Part shown: positions 34,376 to 54,469 of the stretch, one piece after another
Position numbering within the stretch: the stretch's first letter is position 1
Layout of the letters: each line of letters begins with the position of its first letter
NCBI GenBank assembly: GCA_028554795.2
Contig: CM068842.1
Coordinates: forward strand, 55,149,860-55,213,859
Direction of reading: 5' to 3'
DNA from: Sinohyriopsis cumingii
Lineage: Eukaryota > Mollusca > Bivalvia > Unionida > Unionidae
Length of the DNA: 64,000 nucleotides
Position numbers and translations under genes: made by a program
The notes under the pieces: generated by a model
Seen by the model: only the letters and a program-made list of their open reading frames with translations
Databases searched by the model: none
Told to the model about the DNA's origin: nothing

Positions 34376-34622
34376 ACAAGGAGAAAGAAGAAGTGTACGA
34401 ACTTTTTAAAGTGTTCTGTTGTGAATTGTGAATTGGATTGTAAAAAATGGATAAAAGAATACATGAATGATATAAGGTAAGTGTCTTTGAGTTTTGATTT
34501 TAAAATAAGAAGCTACACTCACGCACTCATACACAGACACGTACTATAAGGGTAAAATGGGTGGGGTTTATTTTTGAGTTATTGGCAGATTGAAATTGTA
34601 TTTCTTTTCGAGAAATGTGGGT

Positions 34623-34638
34623 GGCCCTGAAAAGGGCC
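34623..34638 (-). terminator. Histone-type 3' stem-loop of L2 (B)
   Basis: Minus-strand GGCCCTTTTCAGGGCC preceded by AAAAAA and followed by ACCCACA, then CGAAAAGAAATA: the closest fit to the histone consensus together with the C copy at 38524. Confidence 0.85.
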
Positions 34639-35685: not shown

Positions 35686-36025
35686 AAACCCAAAGGCCCT
35701 TTTCAGGGCCAGCCATATTTCTCGAAAAGAGATAGCCTTTCCATTGCCTACCCTTTTTTAAATTTAAATTTAAATTTAAATTTTAAAAAACTTTTTTAAA
35801 AAAAAATCCCATATTCAATTCCCCTTGTCCCTAGACAAACCCAAACTCTATTCCCATGTTAATTTCCCTTGTCCCTAAACAAGCCCAAACTCTATGTTAA
35901 ATTCCCATTGTCCCTAGAGTGGCCCAGCGTTTTTCTCCATGTTAAATTTCCATTGTCCCTAGAGTGGCCCAGGGGTGTTTTTAATGCTAAGTCCCATTGT
36001 CCCTAGGGTGGCCCCATTCACTACT
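35686..36025. repeat. Terminal inverted repeat of B, high-coordinate copy
   Basis: Inverse of 19373-19716. Ends CCCCATTCACTACT. Same element-specific core repeats at both ends. Confidence 0.95.
35695..35710 (+). terminator. Histone-type 3' stem-loop of L3, in TIR (B)
   Basis: GGCCCTTTTCAGGGCC preceded by CCCAAA and followed by AGCCA and CGAAAAGAGATA. Confidence 0.85.
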
Positions 36026-37074: not shown

Positions 37075-37447
37075 AGTAGTGAAGTGGGGCACTATAGGGT
37101 CTATGGGAATTAGCATTAAAAACACCCCTGGGTCGATATAGGGTCTATGTAAATTTAACATGGAGAAAAATCGTGGGTCGATATAGGGTCTATGGGAATT
37201 AGCATTACAGACTTAACCTGGGTCTGTATAGGGTCTATGTAAATTTAACATTAATCACCCTGGGTCTGTATAGGGTCTATGTAAATTTAACATGGACAAA
37301 TAACCCCTGGGTCTGTATCGGGTCTATGTAAAATTGAAACAGGGAGGGTCTCTATTTTTTTTAAAAAAACTAAATAAAAAAAGGGGTAGGCAATGGTAAG
37401 GATATCTCTTTTCGAGATATATGGCTGGCCCTGAAAAGGGCCTTTGG
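37075..37447. repeat. Terminal inverted repeat of C, left
   Basis: Begins AGTAGTGAAGTGGGGC and matches the inverse of 56821-57193 at the same 373-bp length with few differences. It carries about six copies of a GGGTCGATATAGGGTCTAT / GGGTCTGTATAGGGTCTAT-type core in the shared scaffold. Confidence 0.95.
37427..37442 (-). terminator. Histone-type 3' stem-loop of L3, in TIR (C)
   Basis: Minus-strand GGCCCTTTTCAGGGCC preceded by CCAAA, followed by AGCCA and CGAAAAGAGATA. Confidence 0.85.
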
Positions 37448-37464
37448 TTTATGTTAATATGCCC

Positions 37465-37695
37465 TTAACATAAAGGGCATTTGCGACATCTTCTTGTCCT
37501 CAAACTTCGTCTTACAGCAGGGCCATACATCAGAGTTCTCTTGAGGCAACCTTGTCTCTCTATATAGACTCTTCTTATCCACAGGCTGCTGCTGGTCCTG
37601 TGGACAACGGTCCACTTGGATCGGACATACATGAGCATGTCCGTCCAGAACATCATTGTTGACACAAGGGTTGAAGATTCAACGTCTGTCCACAT
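37465..37695 (-). CDS. L3: small basic Cys/Arg-rich protein (C)
   Basis: 76 residues, same family as 35437-35670 with conservative changes and a RTRRCRKCPLC end. Reads outward to the TIR hairpin. Unrecognised. Confidence 0.65.
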   Translation of the reverse strand: MWTDVESSTLVSTMMFWTDMLMYVRSKWTVVHRTSSSLWIRRVYIERQGCLKRTLMYGPAVRRSLRTRRCRKCPLC

Positions 37696-37914
37696 GTTGA
37701 GGCTCCGACAATAGGTGAATCAATGCAGTGAACTGCGCTTATTTATAGGGACAGAAAGGATTGAAACGGATTGAGTTCATTCACCAATCCGAACACGCGT
37801 TACAGAATTCAGTCAGCCCGCATCCAATCTGAAGAGAGCAGTCTGTGACGTCACGTAGTCTATATAGATTCGCTAGCGCTTGTGTGCAGTCAATCTATGC
37901 GACAGTGATTCAAC
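37696..37914. promoter_or_regulatory. Bidirectional L2/L3 promoter (C)
   Basis: TATAAAT on the minus strand near 37740-37746 for L3 and TATATA at 37861-37866 for L2 (49 bp before its ATG). The intervening 110 bp are well conserved with B. Confidence 0.65.
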
Positions 37915-38496
37915 ATGACGGAAACTCAGAAAACGATCCAATGGGGTGCACCAACAGGGGAGACCGCCCAAGGGAACCCGGACTTACTTTCAGAAGAGGT
38001 GAATTGGGATTTTGTGGATTTTCTCTCCTCGCAAGAATTTGTTCCGGAACCTTCGTTACCTTCTTCATTACCGCAAGTGGAAAATTTTAGACAGAGACAG
38101 AAAGAAGAATTGGAGAAATTTATACAACGACAAAAGGAAGCGGAACAGGCTTTTCTCCTACAGCAACAGCAACAAGAAGAAGAGGTAAGAAAACAACAGC
38201 AGCAACAGCAAGAAGAAGTAGCAGCAAAGAAACAAGAGGGTGAAAATCAAACGGTCACGGTACTGTTAGACATTTTAGCGGAGTTAAGAAGTCTGAAACA
38301 AATGTATCAGACTTCTTTATCACGACCGAAGAGAATACGACCTTCCCGAGCTAAACACGTCAACCCTGTGACTAAGCCTACCGTACCACCCTTAGTGATT
38401 TCAACCCAATCATTATCATCATCATCAACATTACGCAGTCCAGAAGTAGGCCTTGGCCGTGGCAAAGGCATAAGGCAGTTAAAGTTGATTGCTTAA
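37915..38496 (+). CDS. L2: Gln-rich coiled-coil protein (C, full length)
   Basis: 193 residues. The acidic-aromatic N-terminal region (EEVNWDFVDFLSSQEF), the glutamine-rich charged coiled coil (about 55-110), helix LLDILAELRSLKQMYQ, a basic NLS-like SRPKRIRPSRAKH (about 137-150), then a Ser-rich tail ending GRGKGIRQLKLIA. The acidic-aromatic start plus basic tail could suit a transcription or replication cofactor; no family recognised. It ends 27 bp before a near-consensus histone hairpin. Confidence 0.65.
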   Translation: MTETQKTIQWGAPTGETAQGNPDLLSEEVNWDFVDFLSSQEFVPEPSLPSSLPQVENFRQRQKEELEKFIQRQKEAEQAFLLQQQQQEEEVRKQQQQQQEEVAAKKQEGENQTVTVLLDILAELRSLKQMYQTSLSRPKRIRPSRAKHVNPVTKPTVPPLVISTQSLSSSSTLRSPEVGLGRGKGIRQLKLIA

Positions 38497-38523
38497 ACTC
38501 ACCCTTTCACCATGAAGAAAAAA

Positions 38524-38539
38524 GGCCCTTTTCAGGGCC
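38524..38539 (+). terminator. Histone-type 3' stem-loop of L2 (C)
   Basis: AAAAAA, then GGCCCTTTTCAGGGCC, then ACCCACA, with CGAAAAGAAATA 11 bp downstream. Stem, tetraloop, both flanks and purine element all fit the replication-dependent histone mRNA signal. Confidence 0.88.
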
Positions 38540-38795
38540 ACCCACATTTCTCGAAAAGAAATACAATTTCAATTTGCCAATAACTCAAAAAAAAAAAAAA
38601 ACCCCGCCCATTTTACCCTTATAGTACGTGTCTGTGTATGAGTGCGTGAGTGTACGTTCTTATTTTAAAATCAAAAGTCAAAGACACTTACCTTATATCA
38701 TTCATTTATTCTTTTCTCCATTTTTTACAATCCAATTCACAATTCACAACACAACACTTTAATAAAAAGTTCATTGACTTCTTCTGTCTCCTTGT

Positions 38796-39269
38796 TTAGT
38801 CTCTCTGTTTTTTGAATTTCTTCACCGTCTTTTCCTCATTTTCTTCCCTTCTTCTTTTCTTCTTCTCCTGTTTCTTTGCCTCTTGTAAATAGAATTGTCT
38901 TTTTTCTTCCTCTTCTTCCTCTAAAGAATCCCTCTCTTCTTTCGAAGAATCCCTCTCTTCTTCTGAAGAATCCCTCTTTTCTTCTGACTCCTCTTGTTTC
39001 TTTTTTGGGCAATCTGGAGACCAATGTCCTTTTTCTTTACAATAATAACAGGTATCTTGACTTTTGTCTTTTTTAGTCCCTGTTTTTGTTCTTTTTTGAC
39101 GGTCTGGACACTCTGAAGACCAATGCCCTTTCTTCTGACAGATATAGCAAGTATCTTGACTTTTATCTCGAAAGGAAGGAGAGTAGTCCGTAGGCTGGTC
39201 TGAAGAGAATTTTCTAATGACCCCTCGCAAAGCTCTGACGAAACGTTCCATCTGGTTAGTCTCTTCCAT
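38796..39269 (-). CDS. L1: protein with two CCHC zinc knuckles (C)
   Basis: 157 residues from the ATG at 39269. The N-terminal helix (QMERFVRALRGVIRKF), then zinc knuckles CYICQKKGHWSSEC (residues about 37-50) and CYYCKEKGHWSPDC (about 70-83), both CX2CX4HX4C. These are followed by a Ser/Glu repeat region (DSSEEERDSSKEERD, candidate casein-kinase-2 sites) and a basic coiled tail. Zinc knuckles of this type bind single-stranded nucleic acid in retroviral Gag and CNBP-like proteins, so this is a candidate ssDNA/RNA-binding replication or packaging factor. Divergent from polB. Followed by AATAAA near 38709, not by a hairpin. Confidence 0.8.
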   Translation of the reverse strand: MEETNQMERFVRALRGVIRKFSSDQPTDYSPSFRDKSQDTCYICQKKGHWSSECPDRQKRTKTGTKKDKSQDTCYYCKEKGHWSPDCPKKKQEESEEKRDSSEEERDSSKEERDSLEEEEEEKRQFYLQEAKKQEKKKRRREENEEKTVKKFKKQRD

Positions 39270-39403
39270 CGTTGTGCTCGGCTTGAGAGTGAAATGAATA
39301 GTGAAAGGACAAGACACACACCCTTTAATATACGCTGGTCTGCTATGACTATAAAGAAGCTCATGGTGTTTGAACTTGAGTCATTTGACTTTTTGCTTTC
39401 AAG
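39270..39403. promoter_or_regulatory. Bidirectional polB/L1 promoter (C)
   Basis: TATAAA at 39350-39355, 49 bp before the polB ATG, and minus-strand TATATTAAA at 39324-39332, 55 bp before the L1 ATG. Confidence 0.7.
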
Positions 39404-42400
39404 ATGAAACGATCTAATTCATTCGAGAAGAAAGAAGAAGAAAGAAGTAAGAGGCAGAAACGTGATCTATCGCCTCGAACCAGGGCTGAAATCTTGGCAC
39501 AAATTCATGCCAGTGATTTTGAAGAGGACATGAGTGAACCAGAATCCGAACCCTCTAAACCAAGTTCACCACCCTTAGTCAACCCTGAAAAATACTATTC
39601 CATTCGAGAGACGGAAAAGCGTTCCTCTAGAAAATTTAGAACCACGGCTTACAAATACACGGTGAAGTTTAAAGATTTCAAGTCCGAAGTACCGTTAGAG
39701 AAAGCAGAAGGGTTCATCACCGGAGTGTGGGATTCTCTGCTCACTGCACTCAAGCGACAATGTCAACCCAAAGAAGACGACCGCTTGAGACTTTCCATAC
39801 AACACGACGGTTTGAAATCCCTTGTTTGGATCGAGTTTAGCACCCCTGCAGAATTGACCGTTTCCAAAGTCATGGACAAGATTCAACACGTGCAACAATC
39901 TAATGACCAGTTTGACATCACCGATGGAAAAGCCACATTGGACATGACCCACGTCCCTCCTCCTCAAGGGACCGGACGCAAAAAGATGTTATTGGTGAAC
40001 GACCTTCGCAGCATTAAGCGTAGCCTTGTCCAAATTCACAATCCTCATGACCAGATGTGTTTAGCCCGTGCCATCGTGGTGGGACGAACCTATGCCAACA
40101 AGAACGACACGGTAGAATGGAAAAGAGACTGGGAGAACATTCGACAATCGGACCGAGCCAAACAACGAAGTGAAGCAGAACTCCTGTTACGACAAGCTGG
40201 CATGTCCAAAGACACACCCTGTGGCATTCCTGAGATGCAAAAATTGCAAGATGCCCTAGCTCCACGATACACCTTGAAAGTGCACCCTCAAGAAGTGCGC
40301 GGGCCTCTGTTGTTTCGAGGGCAAGATTTTAAGGACGGAAAATACATTCATGTTTATCATCACGATGACCATTTCGATACCATTACCAGTATCACTGGAT
40401 TCCTGGGATATGTTTATTATTGTGAGAAATGTGACTATGGTTATAATAATCGAGAGCAGCACAAACATTGTGGATGGAAATGCTCAGGATGTTTGGCCTC
40501 TCCACCCTGTCTGAGCGAAGAACCAGTGCCTTGTTCAACTTGTCTGCGCACGTTTGTCAGCCCTACCTGTTACCAACAACATTTGAAGACGCAAGGTTCA
40601 CAGAAGAAATGTGCTTGTCAACTGCTGAGATTGTGCCCCGCGTGTGGACAAGGCATACGTACCAACAATGCCAAGGCACACGTATGTCGAGGAAAGAAAA
40701 AATGTCACATTTGTCACCACATCGTGGACTTGGAACACGAATGCTACGTGCAAAAATACCATCCCCCACCAGAGAAAGAGGACGGTCACAAGAAGAAAGG
40801 CAATTTCATCTTTTTCGATTTCGAATGCATGCAAGAGACTGGCATTCACATTCCTAATTTCTGCGTGGCTCATCGAGCGTGCGAGAAGTGCATTCAAGAA
40901 CCTATCTTCAGTCATTGCCCTCACTGCAGCAAGATTCCCGGAGGGCGTGAAAAAATCTTTCGGGGACCAAACACGTTAGCCGATTTTGCCCAATGGGTTT
41001 TAGACCCCATCGACAAGACGTGGAGCCAAGAGGACATCGAACGTTACGGAGATTGTCATCGTCATGCCACGGTGATGGCTCACAATTTTTCCGGATACGA
41101 TGGACAGTTTCTTCTCAGATACTATACGGAACAAGGCACCGAGCGTCCTAAAGTGACTTTGAACGGGGCCAAAATCATTTTCATGCAAGTGGGACAAGTA
41201 CAGTTTAAAGATTCGATGAGCTATTTGGCCATGCCTTTGAGTCGAATGCCTAAAACGTTTGGAATGACAGAAATGGCTAAAGGGTACTTTCCACACTTTT
41301 TCAATACGGAAGCCAATCAACACGCCGTTTTACCCCATTTGCCTGAGGCTCACTATTACGACCCCGACAACATGCGTACCGAACAACGAGAAGCTTTCTA
41401 CGCTTGGTACCAGGCTCACGCCTCGGACCCTTTCGACTTTCAGGAAGAAATGCTAAAGTATTGTCGTTCCGACGTGGACATTTTACGACGATGCTGTGGA
41501 AAATTTCGAGAACTGTTCATGGAACACGGAGGGGTCGATCCTTTGAAAGAAGCTTGCACCATTGCCAAAGCGTGTTCCTTAGTGTATCGACAACGATTCA
41601 TGCCTGAAAACACTGTGGCTGTCATCAGTCCTCAAACGACCCACTATGTCAAACGTCAATACTCGGTCAAAGCCCTACGTTGGTTACATTACTTGTGCGA
41701 CAAGGAAGACAAGTGGATTCAGCATGCCCGCAACGGAGGGGGTGAAAAGACCATCGGAACGTATTCGGTCGATGGTTGGGACTTAGAAAACCCCAAGATC
41801 GTGTACGAGTTTAACGGCTGCTTATTTCACGGATGTCCCGTCTGTTACCCTGACCGTGGCACTAAAAATCAGTTTTTGCAACGAACCATGGAAGACTTGT
41901 ACCAGGACACTTGTCAGCGGCGCCTAAAGTTAGAACAGGAAGGATACCAAGTGGTGGAAATGTGGGAACACGAGTACGATCACCGTATGAAAACCGATCC
42001 CGAGTTTAAACGCCTCGTGGAAAGTTACCAGTTCATGGACCCGCTGAACCCGAGGGATAGTTTGTACGGAGGAAGGACCAATGCCACCTGTTTGCTGTAC
42101 CAAGCCGACGAAGAGAAAGGAGAAGAAATCAAATACTTGGACGTGTGTTCGCTGTATCCCTACGTGTGCAAATATTGTCGCTTTCCTGTAGGGAACCCGC
42201 AATTGCTGACGGAACACATCGACCTGAAAAACATTCGACAATACGAAGGCTTGATCAAGTGCAAAGTTTTGCCTCCCACGAACCTATACCATCCCGTCTT
42301 ACCTCACCATTGTCAAGGCAAACTGATGTTTCCCTTGTGCCGTACTTGTGCCGAAACGTGCAACCAAGACCAACCTTGTCAGCACACCCAGGAAGAACGT

Positions 42401-43468
42401 GCCTTGACGGGAACCTGGGTCAGCGTAGAATTGTTCAAAGCTCTGGACATGGGATACTAACTGTTAGAAGTGTACGAAATTTGCCACTTTCCCAAGACAC
42501 AACAATACCACAAGGGTGATCCCAGTGAGAAAGGCATTTTCGCTGACTACGTGGATGCCTTTTTGAAACTGAAACAAGAAGCCAGCGGCTATCCTTCCTG
42601 GTGTCACACTCCCGAAGACCAAATACAATTCAAAGAGAAATACTACGAACAAGAAGGCATCTCTTTAGACCACATCGAGAAAAACGAAGGCAGGCGATCG
42701 TTTGCCAAAGTGATGTTAAATTGCTTGTGGGGTAAAATGGCACAACGACCGTGTTTACCCAAGACGGAATATTTGACAGAACCTTCCCGCTACTTCCAGA
42801 TGATTCACGACAAAACCAAATACATGAAACACGTGGACGTCGTTCGAGAGAATTTGATCTTGGTCAATTACGAAGAAGATCTGGACTTTGTACAAGACGA
42901 CCCTTTTGGAAATGTCATCATTGCGGCTTACGTGACAACTCATGCTCGCTTAAAATTGTACGAAGCTTTAGAACTGTTAGAAGAACGCGTCCTGTACTTT
43001 GACACGGACAGTTGCATTTACATCCATCACCCGATTCAACATCACCCTAACATCGAAGGAGACCGTTTAGGAGCCTGGACAGACGAGCATCCCGACGACA
43101 AGATTCTAAGTTTCGTCAGTGGCGGTCCCAAAAATTACGGCTACGAATACCGGGACAAACAAGGAGAAGTGCACACGACGTGCAAAGTGAAAGGACTGAC
43201 TCTGAATTATCGTACCAGTCGTGTGGTCAACTTTGGGGTATTGAAAGAAGCCTTGCAATCGGGAGAGGATGGAAACTTTAAAGTGACCACCTATCAACCG
43301 AACAAGATTGTACGTTTACCCACTCACCACATCGTCAGTCGACCCTTGGAAAAAGTCTATCAAATTGTATACCAGAAGCGAGTGCGACTTCCCAATCACT
43401 TTACCTTACCGTACGGTCACGTCGGTATTGGTCTGTATATAAAAAAGAACCCTAGGCAAGATCGATAG
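39404..43468 (+). pseudogene. polB: Protein-primed family B DNA polymerase (C, one nonsense codon)
   Basis: 1355 codons. Residue positions: basic NLS-like N-terminus (KRQKR about 17-21), Cys/His-rich zinc-finger-like region about 330-450, exonuclease I D472/E474, exonuclease II N561...D566, exonuclease III Y686...D690, an EFNGCLFHGCPVCYP motif typical of Polinton polymerases near 801, motif A D913-SLYP, motif B K1102...G1110, motif C DTDS 1200-1203. The only lesion seen is CAA to TAA at 42458-42460 (codon 1019), between motifs A and B, so even a truncated product would lack the catalytic DTD. A TATA box for the next gene overlaps the last codons (43436-43446). Confidence 0.95.
43436..43446 (+). 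promoter_or_regulatory. TATA box of the accessory block (C)
   Basis: TATATAAAAAA inside the polB 3' end, 55 bp before the BIR-gene ATG. Confidence 0.65.
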
Positions 43469-43500
43469 TTCATTGCGACTACCAAGACCGAGCGAACAAG

Positions 43501-44244
43501 ATGAATACTTTGAAAGAGACATCGTTCCAGTTTGGGGCTTGTAAAAAAGTTGTATCTTCCTCTAGTGTGACTAATACTGGATGGATAAGACCCAGGCATT
43601 GCGACGGAAAATGTCCGGAAGGAAACTGCGATTGTCCATGTGGTTACCATTGTAATTGCGTAACGGAGTTTGCAGACGAGTGCGATTGTGAGCCTTGCGA
43701 TGTGTACGATGCTGTACGTTGTGACCTGAGCGATGCCGTAAAGCATCATGGGAACTTTAGTGTCCCTACCACTATCATGGAAAGCGATGCTGTGCGTGTC
43801 AAACCTGTGGGATGCGAAAGTGATGCCGCTCGTCCTCTTGGACATTTTACTGGGTTTCGTTTTAAAGGGGAATGTTCACCTTCACGTCTACCCCCATACG
43901 GATGTCATCCAGCCTTGAGCAAACTCCTGCCCATGTCACTCAATCCTCATCGAAACGAACCTGTGAAAGACGAATATTCGTTCCCTGTGCGTTTGTCGGA
44001 ATACTGCGACTTTGAAAATCGTCTTCAATCATTCAAAGGAAAATGGCCTAAGTATCTGGGAGGACCGACCCCCGAAGAATTAGCCAGAGCCGGATTTTTC
44101 TACTTGGGCGAAGGAGATAAAGTCAAGTGCTTCAGTTGCGGTGTGTCACTTCACCACTGTGAACCGCAAGATTCGGCCTACGTAGAACATGCTCGATGGT
44201 CACCGAATTGTCATTACTTACCTTTAGTGGGACCGAGTCATTGA
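43501..44244 (+). CDS. BIR-domain (IAP-like) accessory protein (C only)
   Basis: 247 residues. The C-terminal part is a clear baculoviral IAP repeat: RLQSFKGKWP, ELARAGFFYLGEGDKVKCFSCG and EHARWSPNCHYLPL, with zinc ligands C210, C213, H230 and C237. No RING follows. Residues about 34-66 form an unusual cysteine cluster (CDGKCPEGNCDCPCGYHCNC) without recognised family. BIR proteins block caspases or act in cell division; in viruses of invertebrates they commonly counter apoptosis, so a host-cell-survival role is inferred. Absent from A and B, where its whole region is deleted. The N-terminal M-N-T-L start resembles those of the next two genes. Confidence 0.88.
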   Translation: MNTLKETSFQFGACKKVVSSSSVTNTGWIRPRHCDGKCPEGNCDCPCGYHCNCVTEFADECDCEPCDVYDAVRCDLSDAVKHHGNFSVPTTIMESDAVRVKPVGCESDAARPLGHFTGFRFKGECSPSRLPPYGCHPALSKLLPMSLNPHRNEPVKDEYSFPVRLSEYCDFENRLQSFKGKWPKYLGGPTPEELARAGFFYLGEGDKVKCFSCGVSLHHCEPQDSAYVEHARWSPNCHYLPLVGPSH

Positions 44245-44272
44245 AGTAACTTCTTACCATAATAATCTGTTC

Positions 44273-44623
44273 ATGAATACTTTACAAGAGAACATTCGTG
44301 CTTTGCCTGTGGAGTTGAGAGAACGCATTTACCGAGAGCTGGTCAAAATACAAGTGAAACGTAAAGAACAATTGCATCCGTTACGTCACCGGTGTTTGAA
44401 CCACTGGTACCTTCAGGCTATACAAGGACTGATTGAGTTGAAAGTGTTCCATTGGACAGACATTGATCAACGACCTCCTGGTTATAAAAAGGAATGGTTT
44501 GGTATTGACGATTCTATCTACTACATTGTAAACGTACTGCATCGAATTCCAGAGGAAGAGTTAACGAATTACCAACATCTTTCACGCAATGTCAACTTAG
44601 TGAAAGAGGAAACTTCTGAATGA
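44273..44623 (+). CDS. F-box-like accessory protein 1 (C only)
   Basis: 116 residues. IRALPVELRERIYRELVKIQ at residues 9-28 resembles the start of an F-box (LP-E-R--I---L), followed by a basic helix and HRCLNHWYL. The C-terminal half is acidic and unlike that of its neighbour. F-box proteins link targets to SCF ubiquitin ligases; the resemblance covers only the first helix, so this is tentative. About 120 bp of its 5' part are identical to the next gene, showing recent duplication or conversion. Confidence 0.55.
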   Translation: MNTLQENIRALPVELRERIYRELVKIQVKRKEQLHPLRHRCLNHWYLQAIQGLIELKVFHWTDIDQRPPGYKKEWFGIDDSIYYIVNVLHRIPEEELTNYQHLSRNVNLVKEETSE

Positions 44624-44740
44624 ATTGTAATGTGTAGATTAGTGGTGAAACGATTTAGATTCGACAATGAATTAAAACCATGTTTGTGCAAACAGTACAT
44701 TTCTTGTGTCAGACCAAAGAGGATTTAGTATGACCTATTC

Positions 44741-45259
44741 ATGGATACTTTGCTAGAGAACATTCGTGCTTTGCCTGTGGAGTTGAGAGAACGCATTTAC
44801 CGAGAGCTGGTCAAAATACAAGTGAAACGTAAAGAACAATTGCATCCGTTACGTCACCGGTGTTTGAACCACTGGTACCTGAAGGGTATAAGAGAACTGA
44901 TTCGTCAGAAATTGTTTCAATGGTCAGACCTTGTTCAATACTTCCAGGCCCCCGATGATTCACGTGTTGATCATTTTGGTTACTTCGAGATTCACCTAGA
45001 GCAACCCATTGAGGAAGACGAGGTAAAGGATTACCAACATTTGTTACGTGGAATCTACTTAGCGGAAGAGGAAACTTCTAATCGAACTCTGACGTTTCGG
45101 TTACAGTATGCAAGATTTACATTCCCCACTGGAGAACGAAGATCACTGGCTAGAAAGTACGTGTATTCTTTTCGAAACAAAGAGACTATAAAAACAGGCA
45201 GCTATGCCACGACTTATGTCGTATGTAATCCAACAGATTCCGTGGAAGGAACTCAATGA
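44741..45259 (+). CDS. F-box-like accessory protein 2 (C only)
   Basis: 172 residues. Residues 6-48 are the same as in the preceding gene (from ENIRALPVELRERIYRELV on). The remainder is different, with an acidic stretch (IEEDEVKDYQHLLRGIYLAEEE) and a beta-rich-looking C-terminus. The pattern of constant N-terminus and variable C-terminus suggests a small adaptor family. Function unknown. Confidence 0.55.
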   Translation: MDTLLENIRALPVELRERIYRELVKIQVKRKEQLHPLRHRCLNHWYLKGIRELIRQKLFQWSDLVQYFQAPDDSRVDHFGYFEIHLEQPIEEDEVKDYQHLLRGIYLAEEETSNRTLTFRLQYARFTFPTGERRSLARKYVYSFRNKETIKTGSYATTYVVCNPTDSVEGTQ

Positions 45260-45428
45260 CCATATTCAAACCGTGGATCATTACCATCGATTATTACAAG
45301 AACTTTATCCATTCAATTTGGGACGACAAGTGGTGTGTGTCTTAGTGACTTGTTTTCTGGGATTTCGTTTACCAGCCGATTCCTTGTGGACTCTTTACGA
45401 TCAGTACTTACCACCTCCATGGCCTTAA
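45204..45428 (+). CDS. Overlapping small ORF with hydrophobic segment (C)
   Basis: 74 codons overlapping the ends of its neighbours, with a hydrophobic stretch VVCVLVTCFLGFRLP. TATAAAAA lies at 45187-45194, but only 10 bp before the first ATG, too close for that ATG to be in the mRNA; ATG 45216 would be borderline. It could be the decayed front part of the tail-anchored gene. Weak. Confidence 0.25.
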   Translation: MPRLMSYVIQQIPWKELNDHIQTVDHYHRLLQELYPFNLGRQVVCVLVTCFLGFRLPADSLWTLYDQYLPPPWP

Positions 45429-45967
45429 ATGGTCACGAAAAACTCCTTTTGCTCAAAGCCTTGCGGTTTCATCTGGATACTTCTCGACCTCAACAGGAAA
45501 AAAAGATTCGTCAACTTTTAGCTACCCAAGACGTGTATGACGATGTGTGTGTAGCTTGTGACTTACACCCTCATTGGACAGATGTTCGTGACTGGAAAAA
45601 GGGGGTTTTGAGGCTTGGACCCAAGAAGTGGCCCAGTATGCACAAGAGTTGTTCAAGGAAAAAAGTTACTTTTCAACCTGTGTTAGTGACGGTGCCAGAA
45701 GAACCCGTCACCGAGAACAACCACTCGCTTCAGGACAGGACTGTCATGGACATTCCTGAAAGGTCATTCCGGGAGGACACTTGTGTGACAATACCTCATG
45801 TAGAGACTGTAAGAACATTACACACTGTCCCTAGGACATCTTGGTTACCCAAAACATGTTGTACAGACACTTGTTTATATTCCACTTTGATCGCTTTGCT
45901 GTGTTTTATATTCCTGTACATCACTATTTGGGTTGTATGTATTTTTGTCTTTCGTGTTCATATTTGA
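45419..45967 (+). CDS. Tail-anchored accessory protein (C)
   Basis: 182 residues from ATG in CCATGGCC context. The N-terminal helical region (KLLLLKALRFHLDTSRPQQE) is followed by a middle segment conserved with A and B (KKVTFQPVLVTVPEEPVT), Cys-rich CCTDTC and a C-terminal hydrophobic stretch (LIALLCFIFLYITIWVVCIF) ending six residues before the stop, typical of a tail anchor. No signal peptide. The last gene before the ATPase; AATAAA at 45975-45980 follows directly. Unrecognised family. Confidence 0.65.
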   Translation: MALNGHEKLLLLKALRFHLDTSRPQQEKKIRQLLATQDVYDDVCVACDLHPHWTDVRDWKKGVLRLGPKKWPSMHKSCSRKKVTFQPVLVTVPEEPVTENNHSLQDRTVMDIPERSFREDTCVTIPHVETVRTLHTVPRTSWLPKTCCTDTCLYSTLIALLCFIFLYITIWVVCIFVFRVHI

Positions 45968-45974
45968 AACATTC

Positions 45975-46004
45975 AATAAACGTGTTCTGAAAAAAGTATA
46001 TAAA
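45975..46004 (+). promoter_or_regulatory. AATAAA and ATPase TATA box (C)
   Basis: AATAAA 45975-45980 and TATATAAA 45997-46004, 48 bp before the ATPase ATG. Confidence 0.7.
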
Positions 46005-46051
46005 CTCTTGTCTTGTTTGTTTTTCGTGTCACAAGTGACATTTCTCACACC

Positions 46052-46795
46052 ATGGCTACCTCTGCTGTCTCTGCTCCCTCTTCCTCTACTGTCAAAGTCA
46101 TCGACGAACACTTAGATCGTGCCAGTTGGGAGGCTTTGTATCTTCGCCATCCCTTTAACATGCTCATTGCTGGACCTAGCGGTTCAGGCAAAACCGAATT
46201 CGTCAAACGTTTGATCGAACATAAACATCATTTGATCGATCGGCCACCTCAACGGATCGTGTGGTGTTACAAAGAGTGGCAATCGGCGTACAGCCTTTTG
46301 CGAGAAAGTCAAGGCGATTCCATCGTGTTTGTGGAAGGCATTCCTAAAGAAGACGACGGCATCGTCTCTGACTCCCGTCAAACCCATTTGGTCATTTTCG
46401 ACGACATGTTAGGAGAAGACGAAGAAGAAATTAAATTGTGGTTCACGCGCAAAGGGCATCACCGTAATGCCAGTGTCGTTTACATCACCCAAAATTTGTT
46501 TCAACAAAGTAAAGCCCATCGCACCATCAGTCTCAATGCACATTACGTGGTCTTGTTTAAAAGCCCTCGAGATAAATCGCAAGTGCAAGTCTTAGCCAAA
46601 CAGTTAGGAACGCCTTGGCTGACTCAGGCGTACGACGATGCCACTCAAACTCCACACGCCTATTTACTCGTCGATTTGAAACCTACGACTCCCGAGGTTT
46701 TGCGATTTCGTACCCACTTGTTTCACCACTGGTGCCAAGACGGAGGGCCTGTCCTGTACACGTCTCCGTCCTCGACTTCATTTCACTCCCCATGA
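46052..46795 (+). CDS. Genome-packaging ATPase, FtsK/HerA type (C)
   Basis: 247 residues, intact, near-identical to A and B. Walker A GPSGSGKT, Walker B LVIFDD. Confidence 0.93.
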   Translation: MATSAVSAPSSSTVKVIDEHLDRASWEALYLRHPFNMLIAGPSGSGKTEFVKRLIEHKHHLIDRPPQRIVWCYKEWQSAYSLLRESQGDSIVFVEGIPKEDDGIVSDSRQTHLVIFDDMLGEDEEEIKLWFTRKGHHRNASVVYITQNLFQQSKAHRTISLNAHYVVLFKSPRDKSQVQVLAKQLGTPWLTQAYDDATQTPHAYLLVDLKPTTPEVLRFRTHLFHHWCQDGGPVLYTSPSSTSFHSP

Positions 46796-46852
46796 AAAAA
46801 AATCTATAAAAACCTCAGACCCTTTTTCGTCTGTCTCACACACAGTGTGAAC

Positions 46853-47807
46853 ATGACGTCCCTTCAGTCGCATCTTCCCGTCAAATTGATTCGTGCCTTG
46901 TATGGCATCAGTCGAGAAAAAGATCCACAAACACGAGCTCGTGTCTTAGAAGCTAGTCTCAAAGAAGTCTTACGATGGTTCACGGTGACGGGACGTCAAT
47001 TACTCCAAGGAATCATTCAGATTCCTCATCAAACCCAACGCTTTTTCGATCGAAACAAAGTTGCTTTGGTCCAACTGGCCGATCCCCGCATCGACACTCA
47101 AACCAAAAAACAAATCATTTTGAAACCTGGAGGGAGCGGTACTCTAGGAGGGGTCATCATTCGCTCACTCTTAAGATGGGATCCTAATGCCCCCAAAGTT
47201 ATCCCTAAGACAAAAGTCCAAGGAAGCCCCAAGAAGAAAAAGAAAAAGACCAGGTCCCCAAAGAGAAGAACTTCTCCAGTGGCGGGCCCCTTCCTCTTAC
47301 CAGACACCACCCCGGAAAAAGAAAAGAAGCCCCCAGAAAAAGAAACAGAGAAAAAGTCCCCAGAAAAAGAAAAGTCCACAGAAGAAAACTAGTCGCAAGA
47401 GAGGCACTGCGGCCAGGACGCAGCCTCACACTCGCAAACCACGACCTGCCACAGCGGTGACTGTGTCTCCGACAGCCTCACGTTTATCCACTTCTCCGTT
47501 GATGTCACCAGGAACTGCAGAGTACTTGGAGACGTTAATCACACCAAGAACTTCTCCGTTGATGACCCCAAACAGAACTTCCCCAGTGGCAGGACCCTCC
47601 AATTTAGTGGCAGTGGCTGCTGCTCACAAAGTACCTTCTCCCAAAATCAAAGTCCATGAAAGATCGGGTATGTTACAAAGATTACTGGATTTGTCCAAGC
47701 AAGAACTGACTCGATTTAGTCCGTTACGTACCCCTGCACGACGTGTCATGCCTGTCATGAAGTTGATACGCCGTAAAGACAATCAGTGGCGACGCGTTCC
47801 AGTATAA
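46853..47807 (+). pseudogene. Basic virion core-like protein (C, frameshifted, longest C-terminus)
   Basis: The N-terminal 140 codons match A. A net two-base gain near 47285-47300 (GGGCCCCTTCC, a homopolymer-rich spot) moves the ATG frame to a stop at 47392, while the remainder continues in the other frame to 47807. That remainder runs 20 codons past the TGA of A and B, with a basic end (RRKDNQWRR), and stops exactly at the TATA box of the next gene. The ancestral protein therefore probably had this extra tail. Confidence 0.75.
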
Positions 47808-47811
47808 AAAA
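47803..47811 (+). promoter_or_regulatory. TATA box of pX-like gene (C)
   Basis: TATAAAAAA overlapping the 3' end of the basic-protein frame, 56 bp before the ATG. Confidence 0.6.
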
Positions 47812-47866
47812 GGCCTGTGACCAAGTAGGGTATCAGTGTTCTTTTGGTGCTCCTAAAGACTCAAAG

Positions 47867-48253
47867 ATGTCACCCTCCAGAAAACCCCAAGGAAAGAAAA
47901 GGAAAGGACTGCCACCACGTTTAGCCAAACATGGGGACCTGTTATCTGTCCTGTCCAAAGCTTCTCCACCCCTACGAAAAAAACTCATTCAAACGGCCTC
48001 CAAAGAGGTCATCGATACCGTGTGCGAATGTTGTTTGAACGTTTTGAAAGGCACGATCCCTTTGTCCAAACACCAGAAACAATGCTTAGGCAAACATCGT
48101 CACGTTCTTCGCCAAATGGTTCAAAAGAAAATTCCCATTCGTCAAAAAAAGAAGATGTTGGTTCAACGTGGAGGTATTTTACCTCTCTTGTTAGGCCCCA
48201 TACTGAAAGGAGTCTTGGGAACCATGTTGGGAGGACTGGTGGGAGCAAGATAA
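47867..48253 (+). CDS. Small basic pX-like protein (C)
   Basis: 128 residues, intact, nearly the same as A. Basic N-terminus, CECC, hydrophobic GG-rich C-terminus. Confidence 0.7.
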   Translation: MSPSRKPQGKKRKGLPPRLAKHGDLLSVLSKASPPLRKKLIQTASKEVIDTVCECCLNVLKGTIPLSKHQKQCLGKHRHVLRQMVQKKIPIRQKKKMLVQRGGILPLLLGPILKGVLGTMLGGLVGAR

Positions 48254-48302
48254 AAAGGCCCTCGGAAGTCCCAAGATCTCAGAATCGACCCCTGACAACC
48301 CC

Positions 48303-48947
48303 ATGGAAGGACGAAAACTAGCTTTAGTGCCTTACAAACGATGGATGGAATAGCATCGGTGGCAAGAACAACGCACCCCGCATTTACCTCCCAATCCCAA
48401 TTTGAGCGAGATGTCCCAGTTACAACACGAATTGCAATCCTTGATGGATCGCCAAGATTTGTCCGAAACAGAAAAATCGCAAAAGTACGGTCAACTCTTG
48501 CAACGACTGCAACTCTTTCACCAGAAAGCTTTAGACGAAACAGCTCTACCCACTCTGAAAGATTTTAAGACCTTGATGAAAAGTCCAACACCATCACCAG
48601 TACCAGTACCAGTACCAGTACCACCAGTACCCGTGACCAAGACAGAAAAAGGAGAAGAAGAAGAAGGGTTTCAAACTCCACCAGAAAAAGTACGCAAGTT
48701 AACAACACCACCTACCTCCAGAATTGGATGGATTAAAAAGATGATGGCCACCCCTTCTTCCTCACAAGAGAAAAAGAAAGTGAAGACAGAAGTGAAGACA
48801 GAAGTGAAACAAGAACCGATATCCCCCGCTCAGACATCCTCCTCCTCTTCGACACCTATTGCCGGTCGCACACGCAAAGCCTTGCAATCCAAGAAAATAC
48901 CCCAAGAGAAAAAGAGTAGCCTCTTCCAAGAGTGGGTGCCTTATTAA
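48303..48947 (+). pseudogene. Pro-Val-repeat, Lys-rich protein (C, early nonsense)
   Basis: TAC to TAG at 48351-48353 (codon 17). Downstream the frame is open to 48947 and includes the DLSETEKSQ codons, the PV tract, IGWIKKMM and KTEVKTEVKQEP. An internal ATG at 48411 could give a 178-residue product. This gene is damaged in all three elements, by three different lesions. Confidence 0.7.
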
Positions 48948-48970
48948 CACACCAATCAACACAAAAAAAA

Positions 48971-50080
48971 ATGGAAAAAGTCTTAGCCAGCATTTACTAC
49001 GATCCCTCCCATCCTGCAGGTTACGCAGGAGTTCAAAAATTGTATCGTGCTGCCAAAACGCGACTGAAAAGTCTCCGTTTACCTCAAGTGCAACGATGGT
49101 TACAAGAACAAGCTACCTACACTTTACACAAACCCATTCGACGCAAGTTTGCCAGAAGTCGCACCCGAGTGGAAGGCATCGATCATCAATGGCAAGCCGA
49201 TTTAGCCGATGTCTCTCATTTGGCCAGCTACAATCGTGGTTACAAATATTTGTTCTGTGTCATCGACGTCTTTTTCAAATTTGCTTGGGTCGTGCCCTTG
49301 ACTTCCAAATCGAGCAGCGAGTTAGTGCGAGCCCTGCAACGGGTGTTGAAACAAAGCGGTCGTCACCCTCTTCGATGGCAAACGGACAAAGGAACCGAAT
49401 TTCTGAACCAAGCTTTCCAAAAAGAATTAAAGAAACGTGACATTCATTTTTTTACCACCGAGAATCCCGAAACCAAAGCCAGCATCGTGGAACGTTTTCA
49501 ACGCACTTTGAAAGAACGCATGTGGAAATATTTTACGCATCACCACACTCTGAAGTACATCGACATCTTACCGCACCTTGTGCAAGCGTACAACCAATCT
49601 TACCATCGAAGCATCGGACGTGCCCCGCAAGACGTGACCCCCGAGAACGAAGTGTTGGTGTTTGAGCGCCTGTTCGGTACGTCCCCGACGAGGGATGTCC
49701 CTAAGAAAAGTGGAGAGTTGACCGTAGGAGATTGGGTGCGCATTGGCAAAACCAAACGCACTTTCGACAAAGGTTACTTACCTAACTGGACGACCGAATT
49801 GTTTCGCGTCACTGGACGAGTGCATGGCCGTCATCCTACCGTCTATAAATTGGAAGACATGAACGGAGAAGTACTCAAAGGAACGTTTTATTTGCCCGAG
49901 TTACAACGTGTCACCAAAAAAGAAGACGACGTGTACGACATCGAAAGCATTCTCGAACGCAGAATCCGTAAAGTGGGCAAGCGACGTGTCAAAGAAGTCA
50001 AAGTACGTTGGAAAGGATATCCACCCAGTTTTGATTCTTGGATCGACGCTTCGCAAGTCATCGACTATAAAAAGAAGTGA
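48971..50080 (+). CDS. int: Retroviral-type integrase with chromodomain (C)
   Basis: 369 residues, intact. DDE residues in QADLAD, QTDKGTEF and KASIVERFQ; C-terminal chromodomain VRWKGYPPSFDSW. Substitutions relative to A are few (for example FFKFAWVV for FSKFAWVV). Confidence 0.95.
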   Translation: MEKVLASIYYDPSHPAGYAGVQKLYRAAKTRLKSLRLPQVQRWLQEQATYTLHKPIRRKFARSRTRVEGIDHQWQADLADVSHLASYNRGYKYLFCVIDVFFKFAWVVPLTSKSSSELVRALQRVLKQSGRHPLRWQTDKGTEFLNQAFQKELKKRDIHFFTTENPETKASIVERFQRTLKERMWKYFTHHHTLKYIDILPHLVQAYNQSYHRSIGRAPQDVTPENEVLVFERLFGTSPTRDVPKKSGELTVGDWVRIGKTKRTFDKGYLPNWTTELFRVTGRVHGRHPTVYKLEDMNGEVLKGTFYLPELQRVTKKEDDVYDIESILERRIRKVGKRRVKEVKVRWKGYPPSFDSWIDASQVIDYKKK

Positions 50081-50085
50081 CCATC

Positions 50086-50496
50086 ATGCCCTTTCACACA
50101 GCAGACGCAGCTACGTCGACCACTCCTTCTTCCCCTAGTTCTTCTGTGCAAGATTTACAAAAACAACCCTTGTGGGTGTGGTGTGGAGAACGTGTGCCTA
50201 AAACGCAAATCGTCTTTTTCTGCCAAATCTTCGTGGTGTATTGTGTCATCGGGGCAGCCATCGCCAATTTGAGTTTGCAACAAGGAGACAAACAATTGTG
50301 GACCATTTTATTGAGCAGTTGCATCGGTTACCTGCTTCCCAATCCCTCCCTGAAATTCTCCTCGAACGGGAACGTTGTGTCCAGTGCCAGTGCCAGTCAC
50401 CACTCCAACAACAACCAGAACCCCATTTTGGGCGGAGACACGCCTCTGACGTCCAGTAATATCCCCTCGGACAGCCACAGAACTCTAGAATTATGA
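50086..50496 (+). CDS. Two-span small membrane protein (C)
   Basis: 136 residues from the first ATG (50086), intact. Spans IVFFCQIFVVYCVIGAAI and WTILLSSCIGYLLP. The Ser-rich tail is shorter than in A and B. The stop overlaps the next ATG. Confidence 0.7.
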   Translation: MPFHTADAATSTTPSSPSSSVQDLQKQPLWVWCGERVPKTQIVFFCQIFVVYCVIGAAIANLSLQQGDKQLWTILLSSCIGYLLPNPSLKFSSNGNVVSSASASHHSNNNQNPILGGDTPLTSSNIPSDSHRTLEL

Positions 50497-51428
50497 GTCA
50501 CGAAAACCAATTTTACTTGACCTTACCCAGTGACAGTTCCATGGAGGTGTTTCCCAATAACACGTTGTGCTGTTACACGGCCAAATTACCTCAAGCCATC
50601 CCCTTAGATCACGAAGCCCATTGGGAAGTGGCTTTAGTAGAAATGATTCACCCGACCCAAGTCCTCAATGTCCTTCCCAATCAAAATAAATTTGATGTGG
50701 AAGTTCATGACGAACAAATGCAACAGTACTTGGATACCCATAGCAAATATGACAAGAAAACCCGTACACCAAATCTAAAGTGGACCACCTATCACTTGTT
50801 CATTCCCCCAGGCTATTATTTTAGTGGTCAACATTTGGTCAACACCATAGCCACCAGGTTTAATGGTGTGTTTCTGAAAGCTTTGGAAAGTGTCAAAAAA
50901 AGTGTCACCCTGGAGTACCACAAAACATCTCGTCGCTTCCTGATAAAATTTCCTGAGGGGCCCAAAATCATGTCTTTCTTATTTTGTCCTGAATTGTTTG
51001 ACATGTTGGGCGGTGACATGGAGCTGAGGAAGAAAGTAGAACAACAAAAAGGCGAATTACTAGTCATTTCTGACAACGATACTTTTGCCAAGTATTTTCG
51101 TACCCCGGTAGAACTGAACCAAGGACTAAATTTGATGTTCGTGTACTCCGATGTGGTGGAGTATAACGTGGTGGGACACACCTCTGTGCCGTTACTGCGT
51201 GTCATTCCTTTCAAAGTGGATTCTGCCGCAAACGCTGACGAGGAAGGTGGAAACACTTACCACGTCCACCGCGAATTTGTCCATCCTCACTATTTACCTG
51301 TCAGCAAGTCGTATTTGGACACGGTCAACATTACTATAAAAGGAGATTTAGGACAAAATATTCCATTCACCAAAGGAAAAGTCACGGTGAAACTCCATTT
51401 TCGAAAACGGTTTTCTCACGACTCGTAA
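50493..51428 (+). CDS. Minor capsid (penton-like) protein candidate (C, divergent middle)
   Basis: 311 residues, intact. The first 60 and last 100 residues nearly match A/B. The middle differs in many residues and in length (for example RRFLIKFPEGPKIMSF against RRFLMKFERSKIVSI, and a four-residue insertion in total). Confidence 0.7.
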   Translation: MSHENQFYLTLPSDSSMEVFPNNTLCCYTAKLPQAIPLDHEAHWEVALVEMIHPTQVLNVLPNQNKFDVEVHDEQMQQYLDTHSKYDKKTRTPNLKWTTYHLFIPPGYYFSGQHLVNTIATRFNGVFLKALESVKKSVTLEYHKTSRRFLIKFPEGPKIMSFLFCPELFDMLGGDMELRKKVEQQKGELLVISDNDTFAKYFRTPVELNQGLNLMFVYSDVVEYNVVGHTSVPLLRVIPFKVDSAANADEEGGNTYHVHREFVHPHYLPVSKSYLDTVNITIKGDLGQNIPFTKGKVTVKLHFRKRFSHDS

Positions 51429-51435
51429 GTAAGTC

Positions 51436-51852
51436 ATGTATCCAGTGTACCGAGGGGTTGCACGACAGCGAGGACACGGCTTAGGAGACATGTTAAAATC
51501 GGCCTTTCGTTCGGTGGCCCCAGTCTTGAAACCGATGGTGACACGCGGATTGCACGCCTTGAAAGATGCGGCACTGACGCAAGGCAAAGAATTTCTCCAA
51601 AATGTCATCATCGACAAACAAAACCCTAAAGAAGCCTTCATGAGGGCTGGCAAAAATGTCTTGCTGCAAACGGGCAAAGACATTTTGGGCCGACGAGACA
51701 CACCTATAAATGTTCTGCACGCTACCGAGTCAGGCATTCAGCAAGGACAAGGCAGAAAGAGACGACGAAGAAAACACCCTTTCACCAGACTTCAAGCGAG
51801 AAAGGCTAAGAAAAGAAGAACCGTTCGAGACTTAGACGTTTTCGATTATTGA
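51436..51852 (+). CDS. Basic pVI-like virion protein candidate (C)
   Basis: 138 residues, intact. Only a few changes from A (GRRDTPINVLH). Confidence 0.65.
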   Translation: MYPVYRGVARQRGHGLGDMLKSAFRSVAPVLKPMVTRGLHALKDAALTQGKEFLQNVIIDKQNPKEAFMRAGKNVLLQTGKDILGRRDTPINVLHATESGIQQGQGRKRRRRKHPFTRLQARKAKKRRTVRDLDVFDY

Positions 51853-51866
51853 AACACAGAGAAAAA

Positions 51867-53166: not shown

Positions 53167-53171
53167 AAACC

Positions 53172-53648
53172 ATGGAAGACTGTTGTCCCTCTTTAGCTAG
53201 TGGAGAAACTTTGGAGATGGAATGTGAGGAAAAAGAAGAAGTGATCATGATGAAGTCGAGATGGCCAGAACAAGAAGCCCATTTAGTCTCCTGTTTTGCC
53301 AAACACTTGGTTGACAAAATGACGGAATTGATCAAGAAAAATTGTTATGGATGTCAAAACGATCATCCCAGTCAAATTCAACACGATAAATGCCTGATGT
53401 TGAGTCAAGAAGAAAAATTGGACGAGTATCTGGACGAAGCTTGGAGTCTCATCTCGAACAAAGACGTGTTGCACCAGTGGTATAAAGACTTGCGTGAACA
53501 TTCTTGTCCACCATTAACCACTCAAGAGATCCATCGTATCGAAGCTCTCCTAAATCAGAGTGAGGAAACAGAACGAATAACCGTTTATTCGTCAGACCTT
53601 TTCAAGCAAAAAGTCAGGATCGAATTGACGACTTATTATTACCTGTGA
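53172..53648 (+). CDS. Small acidic protein upstream of protease (C only)
   Basis: 158 residues starting MEDCCPSLASGETLEMECEE. An acidic N-terminus is followed by helical segments and CYGCQNDHPSQIQHDKC, a possible metal-binding cluster. It ends four bases into the protease reading frame region. Only the first dozen codons survive in A and B. Unrecognised. Confidence 0.6.
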   Translation: MEDCCPSLASGETLEMECEEKEEVIMMKSRWPEQEAHLVSCFAKHLVDKMTELIKKNCYGCQNDHPSQIQHDKCLMLSQEEKLDEYLDEAWSLISNKDVLHQWYKDLREHSCPPLTTQEIHRIEALLNQSEETERITVYSSDLFKQKVRIELTTYYYL

Positions 53649-53665
53649 AGAAGAAAACAACACAA

Positions 53666-54226: not shown

Positions 54227-54469
54227 ATTGTCCATTGAGATAAAAATGTTTGTGATTTGAAAAAATTGTTTGATGTTATAGTGTTGGATTATTGTTAAGA
54301 ATGTTAGAGTTGTTGTTTAGTGTTAAGTGATTTTTGAATAAAAAATGTTGTGTTTTGAAAAAAATGTCTTTGTCTTTTGTTTAGCTATAAGAATGTTGGA
54401 TTGATGCTCTTTCATTTTTTACTATCCCTCTCATGACACTCACTAAACGTTGCGACTCGAAAACCGTGT
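54227..54469 (+). other. AT-rich 3' region after protease (C)
   Basis: Single copy of the repeat duplicated in A, with AATAAA near 54337. No gene. Confidence 0.6.

What the first reader, a model, noticed from the sequence alone, without database searches (positions are those of the whole stretch)
38524..38539. Polinton end genes carry histone-mRNA-type 3' stem-loops, 13 copies in three elements
Seen: GGCCCTTTTCAGGGCC (or AGCCCTTTTCAGGGCT) with A/C-rich 5' flank, ACCCA-type 3' flank and a GAAAAGA purine element 11-15 bp on, at 12413, 13305, 14792, 19692, 20738, 21556, 34623, 35695, 37427, 38524, 54951, 55799 and 56826. Each lies just after an L2, L3, R1, R2, R3 or R4 stop, on the coding strand. 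Known: replication-dependent histone mRNAs end this way, bound by SLBP and cleaved with U7 snRNA, giving non-polyadenylated S-phase mRNAs. Inference: these element genes are processed like histone mRNAs and expressed in S phase. I know of no such report for Polintons.
Basis: partly seen in the sequence, partly recalled or inferred. Interest (0 to 1): 0.93.

Follow-up and report, generated by a model that had tools for sequence, protein, structure and literature searches.

The report
Histone-type mRNA ends on Polinton genes
In a probable bivalve genome, the outer genes of a very abundant virus-like transposon end with the same RNA hairpin and downstream signal as the host's own histone genes, suggesting that the element uses the cell's histone mRNA-ending machinery, which is normally linked to DNA replication.

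Summary
All 13 hairpins are there (0.02 expected); all 13 match Rfam Histone3, 7 above its cut-off. Each lies on the coding strand at the 3' end of an end gene of three Polinton-type elements; none of 27 other gene rows in two elements has one. The host's histone array was found: H3, H4, H2B, H2A and H1 end with the same hairpin, GAAAAG element and 13-14 nt spacing. In ten varied element copies chosen without regard to the hairpin, nine could be read; all 27 right-end gene ends have both signals. Across 12 elements both are nearly invariant (65 of 69 columns). The genome holds 31,921 exact copies of one hairpin class, reversed control none. Against: in near-identical copies the R1 hairpin is broken or missing in 3 of 30; six distant relatives lack it; host SLBP and U7 were not found. 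Best reading: these genes make SLBP/U7-processed, non-polyadenylated mRNAs; this and S-phase timing are inferred. Paper searches found no such report.

The parts
12413..12448 (+). Histone-type hairpin + 13 nt + GAAAAGA, element A gene R1 (frame runs through the hairpin)
13305..13340 (+). Histone-type hairpin + GAAAAGA, element A gene R2 (33 nt after stop)
14792..14827 (+). Histone-type hairpin + GAAAAGA, element A gene R3 (37 nt after stop), in the stretch that matches the terminal repeats of B and C
19672..19707 (-). Histone-type hairpin + GAAAAGA, element B gene R3 (frame ends 81 nt upstream), inside the terminal repeat
20718..20753 (-). Histone-type hairpin (loop TTTA) + GAAAAGA, element B gene R2 (32 nt after stop)
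21536..21571 (-). Histone-type hairpin + GAAAAGA, element B gene R1 (28 nt after stop)
34603..34638 (-). Histone-type hairpin + GAAAAGA, element B gene L2 (frame ends 150 nt upstream)
35695..35730 (+). Histone-type hairpin + GAAAAGA, element B gene L3 (24 nt after stop), inside the terminal repeat
37407..37442 (-). Histone-type hairpin + GAAAAGA, element C gene L3 (22 nt after stop), inner edge of the terminal repeat
38524..38559 (+). Histone-type hairpin + GAAAAGA, element C gene L2 (27 nt after stop); the site named in the finding
54951..54987 (+). Histone-type hairpin + 14 nt + GAAAAGA, element C gene R1 (28 nt after stop)
55799..55834 (+). Histone-type hairpin + GAAAAGA, element C gene R2 (41 nt after stop)
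56826..56861 (+). Histone-type hairpin + GAAAAGA, element C gene R3 (23 nt after stop), inner edge of the terminal repeat
37465..37695 (-). L3 gene of element C, 76 aa, basic (pI 10.9); the B copy has no Pfam match
37915..38496 (+). L2 gene of element C, 193 aa, 20 homologues in public proteins, no Pfam match above cut-off
54563..54922 (+). R1 gene of element C, 119 aa
55449..55757 (+). R2 gene of element C, 102 aa; no sequence similarity to R1
56206..56802 (+). R3 gene of element C, 198 aa; only weak similarity to the R3 of element A
38796..39269 (-). L1 gene of element C, two zinc knuckles, no hairpin, AATAAA/ATTAAA 32 and 85 nt after the stop; convergent with L2
19373..36025 (-). Element B, 16,653 bp, terminal repeats, flanked by CATGCT duplications
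37075..57193 (+). Element C, 20,119 bp, terminal repeats, flanked by ATTACC duplications
1..15093 (+). Element A, left end outside the window

Best explanation
The short genes at both ends of this Polinton lineage (L2, L3, R1, R2, R3) carry the complete cis-signal of the host's replication-dependent histone genes: a 6-bp stem with TTTC/TTTA loop soon after the stop, then usually 13-14 nt, then a GAAAAGA purine element. The likely mechanism is that the host's SLBP and U7 snRNP recognise hairpin and purine element in the element's pre-mRNA, the RNA is cut between the two, and the mature mRNA ends at the hairpin without poly(A). The core genes (polymerase, ATPase, integrase, capsid) lack the signal and some are followed by AATAAA-type signals, so the element appears to split its genes into two 3'-end classes. 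The consequence would be that end genes are stable and translated when SLBP is active (S phase, or oocytes and embryos), which would suit a replicating element. Shown here: the signals, their match with host histone ends, and their conservation. Inferred: SLBP/U7 processing, lack of poly(A), timing.
For: 13 of 13 sites confirmed, 0.02 expected; 13 of 13 match RF00032, 7 over cut-off. Host array unit: 5 of 5 histone genes have a hairpin of the same form and GAAAAG at 13-14 nt; element ends match the host H3, H4 and H2B ends at 27-32 of 36 positions, as these match one another (29-32 of 36). Ten of 13 hairpins lie 22-41 nt after a stop; 0 of 27 non-end gene rows of A and C have one within 400 nt. 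In 10 of 97 varied MCP-found copies, taken without regard to the hairpin, 9 could be read and 27 of 27 R1, R2, R3 ends have both signals. Hairpin columns 44 of 48 and purine columns 21 of 21 invariant in 12 elements, against 31 of 115 just upstream. R1 and R2 proteins are unrelated yet share the end. 31,921 exact copies of one class genome-wide, reversed control 0. Read-through proteins P0131 and P0142 imply a hairpin-like stretch, 13 nt and GAAAA in other contigs.
Against: No transcript evidence. SLBP and U7 genes of this host were not identified. Six distant MCP relatives lack the hairpin, so it is not a general Polinton trait. Of 30 near-identical copies, the R1 hairpin has a broken outer pair in one and was not found in two; one of 47 distinct sequences with a hairpin has lost the purine element (L002). 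AATAAA-type signals also follow R1 of A and C and L2 of C further downstream, so polyadenylated forms are possible. The 12 aligned elements are related, not independent, and some flanks are also fairly conserved (up to 0.88 identity).
Confidence: 0.82

Rival explanations
1. The signals do work through SLBP and U7 (so this shares the mechanism of the best explanation), but the gain is not S-phase coupling: it is a compact 3' end in a packed genome, also inside the terminal repeat, or expression in oocytes and early embryos, where histone mRNAs are handled outside the normal cell cycle.
For: The outermost genes read outwards, and their hairpins lie 301-367 nt from the element tip, so a short end signal is useful. 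[quoted passage not shown]
Against: Does not explain why inner genes L2, R1, R2 have the signal while closely packed core genes do not.
Confidence: 0.3
2. The hairpins are leftovers of a host histone 3' end once captured by the element and spread by gene duplication, without present function.
For: Element ends resemble host H3, H4 and H2B ends at 27-32 of 36 positions; many copies are young; a few have lost or damaged signals.
Against: Hairpin and purine element are nearly invariant among 12 elements while most neighbouring stretches vary; 27 of 27 ends kept; strand and position after the stop are kept.
Confidence: 0.06
3. The hairpin is a DNA-level signal of the element, such as a terminal-repeat binding site for replication or integration.
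For: In elements B and C the outermost hairpins sit in the inner part of the terminal repeats.
Against: R1, R2 and L2 hairpins lie outside the terminal repeats; all 13 are oriented with the gene; the purine element and its spacing are conserved as in host histones.
Confidence: 0.04
4. The hairpins act as decoys that bind SLBP or U7 snRNP and so disturb host histone supply.
For: 31,921 exact copies of one class, against 105 listed matches that score the same as the H3 gene of the histone unit (a capped list).
Against: The signals are tied to protein genes with conserved frames, and the purine element is normally cut off.
Confidence: 0.04

Closest known systems
Replication-dependent histone mRNA 3' end (Rfam RF00032; SLBP/U7 pathway)
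   Same: Six-pair stem, TTTC/TTTA loop, A/C-rich 5' flank, purine element at 13-14 nt, soon after the stop, short single-frame genes; nearly the same letters as this host's own histone genes.
   Different: The genes are not histones and have no Pfam match above its curated cut-off; they belong to a mobile virus-like element; the outer pair is A-T in place of G-C in R1 and R2.
Polinton/Maverick (adintovirus-like) elements
   Same: Type B polymerase, A32-like ATPase, rve + chromo integrase, adenovirus-type protease (weak), MCP-like protein with relatives in other bivalves, terminal repeats starting AGTAGT, 6-bp duplications.
   Different: Two 3'-end classes of genes, the end genes with histone-type signals; six distant relatives show no such hairpin.

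Membership tests
Histone 3' UTR stem-loop (RF00032) | Covariance-model match above the curated score | tested here: met
   7 of 13 window sites over 34 bits; the other 6, all R1 or R2 with the A-T outer pair, score 29.3-31.7 and so do not reach it.
Histone 3' UTR stem-loop (RF00032) | Histone downstream element at the host's spacing | tested here: met
   GAAAAG at 13-14 nt in 13 of 13 window sites; host histones 13, 13, 13, 14, 14. Of 47 distinct sequences from the loci held, 44 have 13-14 nt, two have 16 and one (L002) has lost it.
Histone 3' UTR stem-loop (RF00032) | Located in the 3' UTR on the coding strand shortly after the stop | tested here: met
   10 of 13 at 22-41 nt; 3 have frames that end elsewhere.
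SLBP/U7-processed mRNA | Host SLBP and U7 snRNA present | tested here: inconclusive
   PF15247 no hit at E 0.001; RF00066 best 29.3 bits, below 34; U7-like pattern not above its control. Five host histone genes with the signals imply the pathway.
SLBP/U7-processed mRNA | Non-polyadenylated end a few nt after the hairpin; SLBP binding; S-phase regulation | not testable with these tools
   No transcript data.
Polinton/Maverick | Type B DNA polymerase and rve integrase | tested here: met
   DNA_pol_B_2 E 1.9e-42 in B and 2.6e-32 in C; rve E 2.1e-14 and 2.6e-12; Chromo in both.
Polinton/Maverick | Packaging ATPase, protease and capsid proteins | tested here: inconclusive
   Pox_A32 E 9.4e-8. Protease only Peptidase_C5 E 0.008, below cut-off.
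Polinton/Maverick | Terminal inverted repeats and 6-bp target duplications | tested here: met
   Elements B and C, CATGCT and ATTACC; A is cut by the window.

The most novel reading that the evidence does not exclude
A virus-like element lineage has put its terminal genes under the host histone mRNA 3'-end pathway while its core genes use ordinary ends, which makes a replication-gated gene set; with tens of thousands of sites it is the main bearer of histone-type 3' ends in its host genome.
Probability: 0.6. Interest if true: 0.93.

Novelty: new variant of a known kind. Interest (0 to 1): 0.88.

Why it matters
A 2009 paper states that there was then no evidence for SLBP functions outside histone biosynthesis (PMC2781718, passages). 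A mobile virus-like element whose non-histone genes carry the whole signal would break that rule. It would give a natural non-histone substrate set for SLBP and U7, and a way by which a Polinton could tie gene expression to host DNA replication. The load of 31,921 exact sites of one class in one genome also raises the question of how the host keeps its histone supply.

Tried and rejected
Tried without result. Host U7: RF00066 gave nothing over its cut-off (best L009, which by eye looks like an intron end). A U7-like pattern gave 414 matches against 537 for its reversed control, and the four places read closely, of the 100 listed, were not U7; one (L087) is the reverse strand of an element hairpin. 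Host SLBP: PF15247 gave no hit at E 0.001 and four poor ones at E 10 that are not SLBP by eye; the domain may be split by introns. IMG/VR: no MCP or L2 relative and no exact hairpin of the form searched. Rb-binding LxCxE motif in the 14 end-gene frames of the window that were read: none. Structure of the MCP: tool not accepting jobs. Count of the A-T hairpin class genome-wide: not completed. A count of the form GGCTCTTTTCAGAGCCAC: not completed.

Rejected: my first reading of the best RF00032 genome hits as host histones. All 14 of 75 that I looked at lie in elements (L001-L008, L048-L053); for L008 the gene before the hairpin is not readable and I go by the R2-type end 1 kb before it. In the first MCP set (30 of 96 near-identical copies taken) the R1 hairpin pairs fully in 27 (one with a wobble pair), has a broken outer pair in L029, and was not found in L020 and L038. 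Matches of the window to microRNA families are simple repeats around 36,600; these and the other matches below cut-off in that call were set aside.

Full report
Observation. The pattern RGCCCTTTTCAGGGCY with up to one mismatch occurs 13 times in the window, at the 13 coordinates given, against 0.02 expected. Rfam finds RF00032 (histone 3' UTR stem-loop) at all 13 with E <= 2.7e-4, 7 of them above the curated cut-off. The best, 38519-38563 and 34643-34599, score 41.2 bits. The six below the cut-off are the R1 and R2 sites.

Setting. The window lies in a genome of 2.9 Gb in 1138 contigs. The host is probably a bivalve: among the 120 listed of 1002 relatives of the MCP-like protein, those with an animal name are from Mercenaria, Crassostrea, Ostrea and Saccostrea; this is inference. 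The window holds three elements: A (left end outside the window, right tip 15093), B (19373-36025, minus strand) and C (37075-57193). B and C have terminal inverted repeats beginning AGTAGTG and 6-bp duplications CATGCT and ATTACC. Pfam finds a type B polymerase, an A32-like ATPase, an rve integrase with chromodomain (B and C) and, weakly and below cut-off, an adenovirus-type protease (C). A and B have no protease-like frame between MCP and R1. The names MCP and mCP are recalled labels; the MCP gave no PDB sequence match.

Which genes carry it. Element C has hairpins after L3, L2, R1, R2 and R3, element B at the same five, and A at R1, R2 and R3. Ten of 13 lie 22-41 nt after the stop; in A R1 the frame runs through the hairpin, and in B L2 and B R3 the frame ends 150 and 81 nt before it. 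Of 27 rows of other genes or gene pieces in A and C, none has a hairpin within 400 nt after its end; some (L1, the protease, the 182-aa frame) have AATAAA or ATTAAA close by. R1 of A and C and L2 of C also have such a signal further down. R1 and R2 proteins are unrelated, and R3 of A and C only weakly similar, yet their 3' ends agree. In B and C the outermost hairpins lie in the inner part of the terminal repeats (334 and 330, 367 and 367 nt from the tips); in A the R3 hairpin is 301 nt from the right tip.

Host histones. One unit (L066) holds H3, H4, H2B, H2A and H1 on one strand; the first four were named by short motifs in the script, H1 by eye. All five have RF00032 hits of 35.0-39.4 bits and GAAAAG 13, 13, 13, 14 and 14 nt after the hairpin. 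Four of the five have CTAGAAAAGA, as do R1 and R2 of the three elements. Over 36 positions element ends match H3, H4 and H2B at 27-32, and these match one another at 29-32.

Conservation. First set: 30 of 96 scored near-identical MCP copies; the R1 hairpin pairs fully in 27, has one broken pair in one, and was not found in two. Second set: a Mercenaria MCP as query gave 97 more varied copies. The six of them fetched with their surroundings (L071-L076) are 79-85% identical to the window MCP and show no hairpin within 1500 nt after the MCP, where two further core genes lie. I took the right ends of 10 of the 97, chosen for varied MCP length and not for hairpins. Nine reach R1, R2 and R3; in the tenth (L077) R1 lies about 2.4 kb further on, at the end of the stretch. 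All 27 R1, R2 and R3 end positions have hairpin and GAAAAGA, although not every frame is intact (none of 61 aa or more at R2 of L080). Twenty-four hairpins fit the pattern exactly, two have a wobble pair (L084 R3, L086 R2), one a mispair (L078 R3); L086 has a fourth hairpin. Rfam gives 28 RF00032 matches there at E <= 0.0074. In alignments of these nine and A, B, C, invariant columns are 44 of 48 in the hairpin and 21 of 21 in GAAAAGA, but 31 of 115 in the 30 nt upstream; mean identity is 0.98-1.00 in the hairpin, 1.00 in GAAAAGA, 0.89-0.99 in the spacer, and 0.39-0.88 in the flanks further out. The elements are related, so the columns are not independent. Left-end genes were not sampled in this way. 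Over all loci held at that point, 47 distinct sequences were seen: spacing 13-14 nt in 44, 16 nt in two, purine element lost in one. The outer pair is G-C in L2, L3, R3 and A-T in R1, R2 of the window, a change on both sides that keeps pairing.

Number. GGCCCTTTTCAGGGCC-N12-15-GAAAAGA occurs 31,921 times exactly in the genome; the same pattern read backwards occurs 0 times. Of the first 100 places, 28 neighbouring pairs are divergent and 1,086-1,148 bp apart, the L3-L2 arrangement, and 21 of these 28 have a third site on the expected strand 14-22 kb away. One histone gene of five (H2B) fits this pattern, so most sites should belong to elements; this is inference, since only a sample was read. 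The A-T class could not be counted.

Other lineages. L2 has 20 homologues, L3 two, in short public contigs of unnamed origin. Two of these proteins run past the usual stop: P0131 has WPISGPPTSLEKRYY and P0142 TQKPFSGPLTLLENIYY. Read back by hand, both need a hairpin-like stretch, 13 nt, then GAAAA; P0131 implies a changed base next to the loop and P0142 an outer A-C mismatch, as could be expected of decayed copies. Six distant MCP relatives in bacterial MAG records, some probably from animal hosts (25-45% identity; Escarpia and Bathymodiolus among them), have no RF00032 match at E <= 1; at least four are cut close to the MCP or before one end (L042, L044, L045, L047), so this is weak evidence that the trait is confined to a lineage. 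IMG/VR gave nothing.

Mechanism. In the pathway as described in PMC2781718 (passages) SLBP binds the hairpin, U7 snRNP pairs with the purine downstream element, and the RNA is cut between the two. Genes with both signals at the host's own spacing should be processed likewise. This step, the absence of poly(A) and S-phase timing are inferred. The host U7 and SLBP were not found with the tools used; five host histone genes with the same signals make their presence very likely. If U7 exists here, its 5' end should pair with CTAGAAAAGA.

Novelty. Searches of open-access papers for histone stem-loop with Polinton (0 papers), for three of SLBP/Maverick/Polinton/adintovirus/histone (15 of 45 listed), for histone stem-loop with SLBP, virus and viral mRNA (1), for four of histone mRNA, stem-loop, transposable element, SLBP, non-histone (15 of 24 listed), for histone-like stem-loop with virus (0), for Polinton with polyadenylation and stem-loop (4), and for two of SLBP, non-histone genes, histone stem-loop (10 of 30 listed) showed no report of this. 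I saw listings only, apart from passages of PMC2781718. Subscription papers are not covered. I rate it a new variant of known kinds: both parts are known, their union was not found.

Noticed in passing
genome G000: 31,921 exact element-type histone hairpin + purine sites, about 11 per Mb, so this Polinton lineage is very abundant; 95 of 96 scored MCP copies of the first search are open and 99-100% identical, which suggests recent spread.
   Followed up: partly
window 43501-44244: Element C carries a protein with a BIR (inhibitor of apoptosis) domain; the corresponding stretch between polymerase and ATPase in A and B is only about 0.5 kb.
   Followed up: partly
window 11598-12029 and 22294-21959: Elements A and B lack the two frames, one protease-like, that C has between MCP and R1; 27 of 30 near-identical MCP copies taken have the R1 hairpin at a distance that fits this shorter form.
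   Followed up: partly
window 18068-19367: Tandem array of a 40-bp unit between elements A and B.
   Followed up: no
G000 small contigs, e.g. L066: Host histone repeat unit of about 8.3 kb with all five histone genes on one strand.
   Followed up: partly
window 36032-37068: Elements B and C sit head to head with about 1 kb of other DNA between them, including a long simple repeat.
   Followed up: no
L043 11734-11798: Weak twister-P1 ribozyme match (28.9 bits, below the cut-off of 67.2) after a Polinton MCP in a Bathymodiolus symbiont record.
   Followed up: no
L042-L047: Bacterial MAG records that hold Polinton-type contigs, probably contamination from the hosts sampled.
   Followed up: no
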